Origin: Fidelibacterota bacterium
GTDB lineage: Bacteria > Fidelibacterota > UBA8477
Reading direction: 5' to 3'
Assembly (NCBI GenBank): GCA_021734045.1
Contig: JAIPJR010000060.1
Span: 1-17,743, forward strand
DNA length: 17,743 nucleotides
Position numbers and translations under genes: made by a program. How positions within the stretch are numbered: the stretch's first letter is position 1; every line of letters begins with the position of its first letter. The notes below the pieces were generated by a model. It did no database searches. It saw nothing but the letters and a program-made list of their open reading frames with translations, and was not told the origin of the DNA. This document shows, one piece after another, positions 15,670 through 17,743 of this stretch.

Positions 15670-16740
15670 CTACAACACCTTGATTTCCGGGCATTCGCCG
15701 GTCAAAGGTATGAAGGTACCAACCATGGCTGCCGTAATACCGGCCTTTTTTAGCGCTGAGAGGCAACTGACGGCCCTTTCTTCCGGCAGGCAGATAAGCA
15801 GTCCACCGGAAGTCTGGGGATCGAACAGGAGCCAATTTTCAGGAGCATCGAGCCGCGAAGTGAGTGTGACCCGGGGGTGATAAAATTCCCGGTTTGTTTT
15901 GGTTCCACCGGGTAAAATGCCTTGTTTGGCAAAAACTACCGCACCGGGCAGAAGGGGCAATTCTTCCAACTGTAATTCCAAACTAACACCACTGGCATCA
16001 CAGATTTCCAGCGCATGACCAACCAGGCCGAAGCCGGTCACATCGGTGAGCGCATGGCAATCTGAGGCGACGGCAATCTCACTGGCTTCCCGGTTCAGCA
16101 TAATCATCGTTTCAATCATCTGATCCGTTTCGGAAGTTGATGCAAGTTTGCGTTTTACAGCTGTTCCAAGGATTCCGGTGCCAAGCGGTTTGGTAAGTAT
16201 CAATCGATCGCCGGCTCTGGCCCCTTTGTTGGTCTTCAAGTGCTCAGGATGCACTGTTCCGGTCACACTTAGGCCATATTTCACTTCGTCATCTTTTATA
16301 GAATGGCCACCCACCAGCAACGCTCCGGCTTCCTCGATCTTGGAGAGTCCACCCAGTAGGATGTCTTTGAGAACCTGCTTATCCATGGTCTCAATGGGAA
16401 AGCCAACGATATTCATGGCGGTGAGCGGCGTACCACCCATGGCGTAAATATCGCTGAAAGCGTTGGCGGCGGCTACCTGACCAAAGATGAACGGGTCGTC
16501 CACGATGGGTGTGAAAAAATCCAGCGTCTGGATAATGGCCAAATCGGGCCGCAGTTTATAAACGCCGGCATCGTCGTGAGAGTCAGCACCCACCAATAAA
16601 TTCTCATGCTGCGGCAAGCGTAAACCACACAAAATGTCGTCCAGGTCCCCCGGACCGATTTTACCCGCTCACCCGGCGGCTTTCACCCGGGCTGTCAGAT
16701 GGATGGGCTGCTGATTTTGCTGCTCAGTCGGTGTGCTCAT
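15670..16740 (-). CDS. selD: Selenide, water dikinase, a selenocysteine-containing protein
   Basis: SelD makes selenophosphate, the selenium donor for selenocysteine, from selenide and ATP. Frame 15670-16632 alone gives an N-terminally truncated protein. Reading upstream, the same frame continues through one TGA (16671-16669) to ATG 16740, giving 356 aa with Sec at position 24 in KAAGUAGKIGPGDL. E. coli SelD has catalytic Cys17 and Lys20; here U24 and K27 keep the same spacing. Further motifs: SHDDAGVYKL, QTLDFFTPIVDDPFIFGQVAAANAFSDIYAMGG, VGGHSIKD, GDRLILTKPLGTG, ALTDVTGFGLVGHALE and FDPQTSGGLL. A SECIS-like hairpin follows the TGA. No strong Shine-Dalgarno is seen. Presence implies selA, selB and tRNA-Sec elsewhere. 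Confidence 0.95.
16644..16656 (-). promoter_or_regulatory. SECIS-like hairpin in selD
   Basis: Read on the minus strand, GGTCC (16656-16652), loop GGG, GGACC (16648-16644) forms a perfect 5-bp stem starting 12 nt after the TGA at 16671-16669. The apical loop begins 18 nt after the TGA and starts with G. As I remember the bacterial SECIS rules (apical loop about 16-37 nt after UGA, a G in the first two loop positions), it fits. Such hairpins bind SelB to direct selenocysteine insertion. Confidence 0.65.
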
Positions 16741-16887: not shown

Positions 16888-17271
16888 TTAGCTGGTAAGA
16901 TTTGCCATGAGCATGGCAACTTTTTGTTCCGTGGTAGATTTCCGGAATTTCAGGGTGCGAATAATCGCCTCAATTTGATCTGCACCCAGCTTCCGACCCA
17001 GCTGCTGGTGAACCCATAGGCTAAGTAACAGCGCAGTACGGTCATTTTGCGAGGCGAATGGCTTGACCTCAATAAGGGTCGTGAAAATTTGCTCCAGGTA
17101 CTTGGTTGGCACATCGCCTGATCGGGATAAATCGGTGGCAATCTGTTCTGAAGAGGGGATTGCTGCTAATTTCCCATAACCGTCCTGGCTTTCAGCCCCA
17201 AAATGGCTGATGAATGACTCGCAGAGGGTCCAATTCATGAGTGAAACCAACAATATGTCGGGTTTATTCAC
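16888..17271 (-). CDS. Doc-like (Fic/Doc fold) protein with a degenerate active site, partner of an AbrB-type antitoxin
   Basis: The 127-aa product has no obvious annotation, but its size and layout match the P1 toxin Doc (126 aa). The segment K70-P-F-A-S-Q-N-D-R78-T-A-L aligns without gaps to the Doc core H66-I-F-N-D-A-N-K-R74-T-A-L: F, N, R, T, A and L are kept, but catalytic His becomes Lys, Asp becomes Ser and Lys becomes Asp. A hydrophobic helix (LLLSLWVHQQLGRKL) follows as in Doc. Doc kinases phosphorylate EF-Tu; this one is predicted to be inactive or changed. The start is GTG 17271 with a strong GAGGAGG ribosome site inside the end of the antitoxin gene, 2 nt after its stop, so translation is coupled. 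Chance similarity is not excluded. Confidence 0.6.
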   Translation of the reverse strand: MNKPDILLVSLMNWTLCESFISHFGAESQDGYGKLAAIPSSEQIATDLSRSGDVPTKYLEQIFTTLIEVKPFASQNDRTALLLSLWVHQQLGRKLGADQIEAIIRTLKFRKSTTEQKVAMLMANLTS

Positions 17272-17273
17272 GA

Positions 17274-17516
17274 TTATTCCTCCTCGAGACGGGCCAAGTA
17301 CTGCTCGTGCTTTTCAATAAATGAACCCAGCTTTTCGACCAGGGTACGACTCAGGACATTCATATCACCTGGAATGGGTTTGATAGTAATCTCACTGTTC
17401 TTCTCATCCACATCCAGCGTCACTTCTGAGCCTTTGTCCAGGTGTAGTGATGTGAGGGTCGATCGGGGAATCACAATCCCCAGAGATGATCCAATTTGTA
17501 TAATTTTACGCTTCAT
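17274..17516 (-). CDS. SpoVT/AbrB (MazE-like) family antitoxin
   Basis: The 80-aa product has an N-terminal swapped-hairpin AbrB DNA-binding domain (about 3-47: KIIQIGSSLGIVIPRSTLTSLHLDKGSEVTLDV, then SEITIKPI) and a helical, charged C-terminal tail (about 55-80) of the kind that binds and blocks a toxin. The IGSSLGIVIPR motif is diagnostic. The ATG is preceded by GGAGG (17525-17521). The gene lies directly before the Doc-like gene, as antitoxins usually do, and likely represses its own promoter through the palindrome just upstream. Confidence 0.88.
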   Translation of the reverse strand: MKRKIIQIGSSLGIVIPRSTLTSLHLDKGSEVTLDVDEKNSEITIKPIPGDMNVLSRTLVEKLGSFIEKHEQYLARLEEE

Positions 17517-17526
17517 TTGACCTCCG

Positions 17527-17539
17527 TATCATTATGATA
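17527..17539. promoter_or_regulatory. Palindromic operator candidate upstream of the antitoxin gene
   Basis: TATCAT-T-ATGATA is a perfect 13-nt palindrome that ends 2 nt before the antitoxin ribosome-binding site. AbrB/MazE-type antitoxins commonly autoregulate by binding palindromes over their promoter. The flanking sequence is AT-rich (ATAATATCATAAT on the minus strand) and could contain the -10 element. Confidence 0.5.
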
Positions 17540-17606
17540 TTATTGTACTGCCTCGAGGGTCGGAGTTACAAATGAATTTGATGGTATATTACTGAATGTG
17601 ATACAG

Positions 17607-17660
17607 TGTCAGCGGGCACTTGAAACTGGGCCACTTGTGGGCACTTCAAAGTGGGCCACC
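17607..17660. repeat. Two tandem 21-nt repeats, probable end of an insertion sequence
   Basis: Copies at 17614-17634 and 17639-17659 (period 25 nt) share the frame GGGCACTT-n-AAA-n-TGGGCCAC and differ only at two positions, G/C and C/G, that change together. The second copy contains a perfect inverted repeat CACTTCAAAGTG. The stretch begins TGTCAGC at 17607. Multiple short repeats at a TG terminus are typical of IS21-family ends, and the truncated minus-strand frame just inside (ending 17674) fits a transposase tail. The family name is inference. Confidence 0.45.
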
Positions 17661-17673
17661 CTTTGAGCGTAGT

Positions 17674-17743
17674 TTAGCTGTCTGATTTCTTCTTCTCCAA
17701 CTTCTTTTCTTCGATATTCATTTCTCCTTTTGTGATGTTTCTA
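17674..17743 (-). CDS. C-terminal tail of a truncated frame, possibly a transposase subunit
   Basis: The frame is open from the window edge to TAA (17676-17674) and reads about 22 residues, very rich in Lys and Glu (KGEMNIEEKKLEKKKSDS at the end). The stop lies 14 nt inside the repeats that look like an insertion sequence end, which is where an IS21-type transposase gene would finish. The frame is too short to identify. An internal ATG at 17721 with AGGAG just upstream could instead start a 15-residue peptide. Confidence 0.3.
   Translation of the reverse strand, partial: RNITKGEMNIEEKKLEKKKSDS

What the first reader, a model, noticed from the sequence alone, without database searches (positions are those of the whole stretch)
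16888..17516. AbrB-type antitoxin paired with a Doc-fold protein whose catalytic loop is rewritten
The two genes have the exact layout of an AbrB-Doc toxin-antitoxin module (small antitoxin first, 2-nt gap, coupled ribosome site, 127-aa partner). The core loop KPFASQNDR keeps F, N, R and the TAL after it but replaces His by Lys, Asp by Ser and Lys by Asp. The frame is intact, so this is not simple decay. Options are a domesticated regulator, a co-repressor without toxin activity, or a Fic-fold enzyme with a different chemistry.
Basis: partly seen in the sequence, partly recalled or inferred. Interest (0 to 1): 0.65.

Follow-up and report, generated by a model that had tools for sequence, protein, structure and literature searches.

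The report
Conserved dead-motif Doc with AbrB partner
A small gene pair that looks like a bacterial toxin and its antidote has been kept intact and under strong selection in one group of marine bacteria although the 'toxin' has lost almost all the amino acids of its known active site, so it probably now serves as part of a gene regulator rather than as a toxin.

Summary
An 80-aa AbrB/MazE protein (17274-17516, -) and a 127-aa partner (16888-17271, -) lie 2 nt apart with a coupled ribosome site. The partner is a real but remote Doc homologue: its family profile aligns with ten canonical Docs over 116 columns (score 53.7; 200 permuted controls, maximum 22.7). It is not decaying: profile searches of 245 Neomarinimicrobiota genomes found 22 orthologues, one per genome, all unbroken; in pairs with dS 0.2 to 1.5, dN/dS is 0.02-0.06. 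In 19 of them (three other families) the loop reads E-P-F-x-S-[KR]-N-[RK], with few exceptions; in the window's genus [KL]-P-F-x-[ST]-Q-N-x-R. Every member lacks the catalytic His, the metal-binding Asp and the Gly; only P, F and N are invariant. Outside the window's genus the unit is abrB1-abrB2-doc-like. None was found on plasmids, phages or viral contigs. A palindrome that occurs once in the genome lies between promoter and abrB start. Best reading: a domesticated, catalytically dead Doc kept as co-repressor/partner of AbrB. A changed chemistry is not excluded. Structure prediction failed (pLDDT 54), so the fold rests on sequence profiles. New variant of composite mazE-doc.

The parts
17274..17516 (-). 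abrB/mazE-type antitoxin-like gene, 80 aa (P0002)
   Evidence: Pfam MazE_antitoxin 4e-9, above the gathering score; NCBIfam TIGR02609 doc_partner 1.3e-7, below its cut-off, positions 1-72 of 74
16888..17271 (-). Doc-like gene with rewritten catalytic loop, 127 aa, GTG start (P0001)
   Evidence: 22-member family; hhalign to canonical Docs; PHROG 577 and TIGR01550 hits of its relatives
17038..17064 (-). codons of the loop KPFASQNDR (residues 70-78), in place of HPFxDGNKR
   Evidence: translation; alignment with canonical Docs
17279..17285 (-). ribosome-binding site GAGGAGG of the Doc-like gene, inside the 3' end of abrB (translational coupling)
   Evidence: sequence
17542..17571 (-). sigma-70-like promoter TTGTAA-18-TACAAT of the operon
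   Evidence: 4 promoter-like sites found, 1.8 expected, so weak alone; the stretch is shared with G001
17527..17539 (.). palindrome TATCATaATGATA between the -10 box and the abrB start; probable operator
   Evidence: present in G000 and G001 at the same place, the only exact copy in each genome; altered to AATCATAATCAT in G002

Best explanation
This is a domesticated composite mazE-doc module. The AbrB-like protein dimer binds the palindrome over the operon's promoter/start region, and its C-terminal tail holds the Doc-like protein. The Doc-like protein keeps the Doc scaffold and the antitoxin-binding role but has lost the Fic/Doc catalytic residues, so it acts as a co-repressor or scaffold in the manner of Phd-Doc and has no EF-Tu kinase activity. 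Shown here: the operon, homology to Doc, loss of the motif in every member, purifying selection, single-copy presence with conserved synteny, a unique palindrome. Inferred: complex formation, DNA binding, lack of toxicity, and the function as a regulator.
For: Doc homology: hhalign score 53.7, probability 95.7, 116 columns, against a maximum of 22.7 in 200 permuted controls, and 36.3 with the loop masked; window genus to main clade 46.8 and main clade to canonical Docs 53.2. Loss of the motif: no His, Asp or Gly at the motif positions in any of 22 members; P, F and N invariant. Selection: dN/dS 0.02-0.06 in five of the seven pairs where it could be computed; the other two are near-identical pairs with dS 0.02 and 0.11; no stops in 22 of 22. 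Domestication: one copy per genome; synteny shared across families f9, f12 and f13 (mutS on one side in f12 and f13, adenine deaminase and/or asparaginase on the other); selD/glgA neighbours in the window's genus; no relatives on plasmids, phages or viral contigs. Partner retained: AbrB adjacent in all 22; TIGR02609 matches to position 72 of 74, tail included. Operator: palindrome once per genome, next to the promoter. Precedent: Doc and Phd repress together (PMC3920265); E. faecalis Phd recognises one palindromic operator (PMC13034048).
Against: No biochemical data. A Fic protein with a degenerate core motif (C. fetus Fic2) is still toxic in E. coli (PMC5651007), so loss of the motif does not prove loss of toxicity. 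In the main clade a Glu at the His position and many other polar residues are invariant, more than a plain scaffold seems to need. The palindrome is not kept in the main clade or fully in G002. The predicted structure was unusable.
Confidence: 0.55

Rival explanations
1. Still a toxin or enzyme: a Doc-fold enzyme with a new active site (E-P-F-x-S-[KR]-N-[RK] in the main clade) and different chemistry, held in check by one or two AbrB antitoxins.
For: 19 of 19 main-clade members keep Glu at the His position plus invariant R30, C49, N57, D60, Q64, Y70, Y71, N82, D114, N120, D122. Degenerate-motif Fic2 is toxic (PMC5651007). A known Doc clade D2 has His->Gln (PMC4454073). The toxin-antitoxin layout with coupling is kept.
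Against: The window's genus replaces the Glu by Lys or Leu and most of the other invariant residues too, so a shared chemistry is unlikely there. Strict single-copy presence with conserved neighbours is unusual for addiction modules.
Confidence: 0.2
2. Anti-addiction or immunity module: the AbrB protein and inactive Doc give protection against incoming mazE-doc elements by cross-neutralising or cross-repressing them.
For: AbrB tail and Doc scaffold are retained without the known catalytic residues. Fic proteins neutralise other Fic proteins in C. fetus (PMC5651007).
Against: Canonical Docs are rare in this phylum (9 of 245 genomes over the TIGR01550 cut-off), and doc_partner-type AbrB genes outside this cassette are few, so there is little visible need.
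Confidence: 0.1
3. A relict toxin-antitoxin module in decay.
For: The catalytic motif is lost; the window's genus sits on a long branch.
Against: 22 of 22 intact frames, dN/dS 0.02-0.06, conserved synteny.
Confidence: 0.03
4. Not Doc at all: an unrelated helical protein whose loop resembles the Fic motif by chance.
For: No significant Pfam, NCBIfam or PDB hit for the window protein or its family against PDB sequences. AlphaFold model of low confidence with no Fic match worth trusting.
Against: Full-length profile match far above the controls, still high with the loop masked; PHROG 577 and TIGR01550 hits of relatives; the partner is of the Doc-antitoxin type.
Confidence: 0.05

Closest known systems
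TasAB / composite mazE-doc toxin-antitoxin systems (TIGR02609 + TIGR01550; Fico and Mahillon 2006, PMC1626090)
   Same: AbrB/MazE-type gene first, Doc-type gene directly after and translationally coupled; similar lengths; homologous proteins.
   Different: The conserved TasB motif H(x)5NKR is lost; two abrB genes in most relatives; 2-nt gap here and 8-nt overlap in the relatives rather than 4-nt overlap; single-copy, chromosomal, with conserved neighbours.
P1 Phd-Doc
   Same: Doc scaffold by profile homology; antitoxin-toxin operon with a palindrome at the promoter; likely co-repression.
   Different: AbrB instead of Phd; no catalytic His, Asp, Gly or Lys in the loop; kinase activity not expected.
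Doc clade D2 (His->Gln) and other Fic/Doc proteins with altered motifs (PMC4454073); AvrB
   Same: Fido-superfamily proteins without a standard motif.
   Different: D2 keeps [DE][GV]NKR, this family does not; AvrB is a secreted effector without an antitoxin partner.
Campylobacter fetus Fic2 (PMC5651007)
   Same: Degenerate core motif, with a partner encoded next to it.
   Different: A Fic rather than a Doc protein; the partner is another Fic protein; toxicity was shown there.

Membership tests
mazE-doc (TasAB) type II toxin-antitoxin module | antitoxin gene directly before toxin gene, coupled | tested here: met
   2-nt gap with ribosome site in the abrB end; 8-nt overlap in relatives
mazE-doc (TasAB) type II toxin-antitoxin module | AbrB/MazE-fold antitoxin of the Doc-partner kind | tested here: met
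   Pfam MazE above cut-off; TIGR02609 significant but below its curated cut-off
mazE-doc (TasAB) type II toxin-antitoxin module | second protein homologous to Doc | tested here: met
   hhalign with permuted controls; PHROG 577 and TIGR01550 hits in relatives; the window protein alone hits no family model
mazE-doc (TasAB) type II toxin-antitoxin module | Fic/Doc catalytic motif HxFx[DE][GA]NKR | tested here: not met
   KPFASQNDR; His, Asp and Gly absent in all 22 members
mazE-doc (TasAB) type II toxin-antitoxin module | toxicity of the second protein and neutralisation by the first | not testable with these tools
   needs expression experiments
Fic/Doc (Fido) fold | Doc topology in a structure or confident model | tested here: inconclusive
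   AlphaFold2 with 2 sequences, pLDDT 54; structure search uninformative
Doc clade D2 | motif Qx[FY]x[DE][GV]NKR | tested here: not met
   loop sequences; definition from PMC4454073
Phd-Doc-type autoregulation (conditional cooperativity) | palindromic operator at the promoter | tested here: met
   TATCATaATGATA, once per genome in G000 and G001; not found in the main clade
Phd-Doc-type autoregulation (conditional cooperativity) | toxin-dependent change in operator binding | not testable with these tools
   needs gel-shift assays

The most novel reading that the evidence does not exclude
The 22-member family is a new Doc-fold enzyme class in Neomarinimicrobiota with its own conserved active site (Glu at the His position, a conserved C-x2-G-x2-L-[ST]-N flap and a C-terminal D-x4-G-N-x-D-I-S-x-W motif), controlled by a hetero-complex of two AbrB proteins, and doing a housekeeping modification rather than killing.
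Probability: 0.12. Interest if true: 0.8.

Novelty: new variant of a known kind. Interest (0 to 1): 0.5.

Why it matters
Toxin-antitoxin modules are often proposed to turn into ordinary regulators, but clear cases are few in which the toxin partner, stripped of its catalytic residues, is kept under strong purifying selection across several bacterial families. This one gives a defined three-gene (abrB1-abrB2-doc-like) and two-gene (abrB-doc-like) comparison in which the co-repressor role of Doc can be tested apart from its toxicity.

Tried and rejected
AlphaFold2 on the window protein with its 88% relative: pLDDT 54; Foldseek and VIA-align on it gave nothing usable. The absence of a Fic match there says nothing. 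Profile search against PDB sequences: nothing significant. Viral contigs, phages and plasmids: no relatives. A regulon for the palindrome: no second exact site in G000 or G001. Search outside the phylum by genome: not possible with the handles on hand, and the one genome-contig scan, made with the window protein, reached only its close relative. Rejected: decay (selection, intact frames) and chance resemblance of the loop (profile controls). Rfam search around the operon and selD: nothing.

Full report
What is there. On the minus strand at the right end of the window lie an 80-aa AbrB/MazE-type ORF (17274-17516) and a 127-aa ORF (16888-17271, GTG start), 2 nt apart, with a GAGGAGG ribosome site in the end of the first. 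The first protein matches Pfam MazE_antitoxin above its cut-off and the NCBIfam model for antitoxins of Doc (TIGR02609) significantly but below its cut-off. The second matches no family model on its own. The contig belongs to a 2.5-Mb genome whose nearest named relative is a Candidatus Neomarinimicrobiota MAG.

Is the second protein a Doc? One species of the genus has it at 88% and another at 66% identity. A profile of these plus one distant relative found 22 members in 245 genomes of the phylum, and the final profile found the same 22, the best of the weak hits below them being the Fic motif of ordinary Fic proteins. The 22-member profile aligns with ten canonical Doc proteins, mostly from plasmid mazE-doc and phd-doc modules, over 116 columns with score 53.7; 200 column-permuted versions of the Doc alignment gave at most 22.7; with the loop masked the score is still 36.3. 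The window's genus matches the other members at 46.8 and canonical Docs at 26.5 (permuted maximum 20.8), so its link to Doc rests partly on the other members. Ten members hit PHROG 577 (Doc-like toxin, best 1e-4) and four hit TIGR01550 (best 8.5e-4). In the tree the 22 form one group apart from the canonical Docs (99/98), with the window's genus on a very long branch. Structure prediction from two sequences was too poor to use (pLDDT 54).

The loop. Canonical HPFxDGNKRTA has become KPFASQNDRTA in the window, LPFDTQNIRTA in G002, and E-PF-x-[SGT]-[KRN]-N-[RKI]-x in the other 19 members. Pro, Phe and Asn are invariant; the catalytic His, the Asp and the Gly are gone everywhere; the final Arg is kept only in the window's genus.

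Not decay, not mobile. All 22 frames are intact. In five of the seven pairs in which dN/dS could be computed it is 0.02-0.06; the other two (0.40 and 0.24) are near-identical pairs with dS 0.02 and 0.11, too little change to judge. There is one copy per genome. In the three other families the order is abrB1-abrB2-doc-like (abrB1 was not recovered by the script in one of 19, where a shorter frame is present; abrB2 likewise in another, where it starts with GTG), with the doc-like start overlapping the abrB2 end by 8 nt. Neighbours are shared between families: mutS upstream in f12 and f13, adenine deaminase downstream in f9 and f13, asparaginase nearby in f9 and f12; in the window's genus the pair lies between selD and glgA, as seen in G001 and G002 (gene names read by eye from the translations). 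No relative was found on plasmids, phages or viral contigs. The window's genome has a single abrB of this kind.

Regulation. Upstream of the window's abrB there is TTGTAA-18-TACAAT and, just downstream of it, TATCATaATGATA (17527-17539), at the same place in G001 and nowhere else in either genome; G002 has an altered form. The main clade has a different, recurrent TTGATT/TATTTT promoter-like pair and no such palindrome.

Mechanism. The best-supported reading is a former mazE-doc module kept as a regulator: AbrB binds DNA and, through its tail, the Doc-like protein, which serves as a co-repressor as Doc does with Phd (PMC3920265). Complex formation, DNA binding and the lack of toxicity are inferred. 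The main caution is that a degenerate-motif Fic protein has been shown to be toxic (PMC5651007), and that the main clade keeps many polar residues without exception, which could mark an interface or a new active site.

Novelty. Composite mazE-doc modules are known (PMC1626090), as are Doc clades with a changed motif (PMC4454073). A Doc family that has lost His, Asp and Gly in every member, is held in single copy through several families and often carries two AbrB genes was not found in the papers searched; that search covers open-access papers only.

Noticed in passing
window 15670-16740 (-): selD has an in-frame TGA at codon 24 (KAAG-U-AGKIGPGDL), so it is probably a selenocysteine-containing SelD; the ORF finder cuts it to start at 16632. 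The open frame in G001 and G002 also begins at AGKIGPGDL, directly after a stop.
   Followed up: partly
window about 17606-17743: The right end of the contig is a repeated sequence with four 100%-identical copies in the genome and one in G001, several at contig ends: an insertion-element-like end placed between the operon and the place where relatives have glgA.
   Followed up: partly
L065-L079, families f9/f12/f13: Two paralogous abrB genes in tandem before the doc-like gene; each forms its own group in the tree, so the duplication is older than these families.
   Followed up: partly
window about 17560-17610 (-): Two similar stretches, TCACATTCA and TCAAATTCA, about 21 bp apart upstream of the promoter, recur in G000 and G001 and in part in G002; possible further binding sites.
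   Followed up: no
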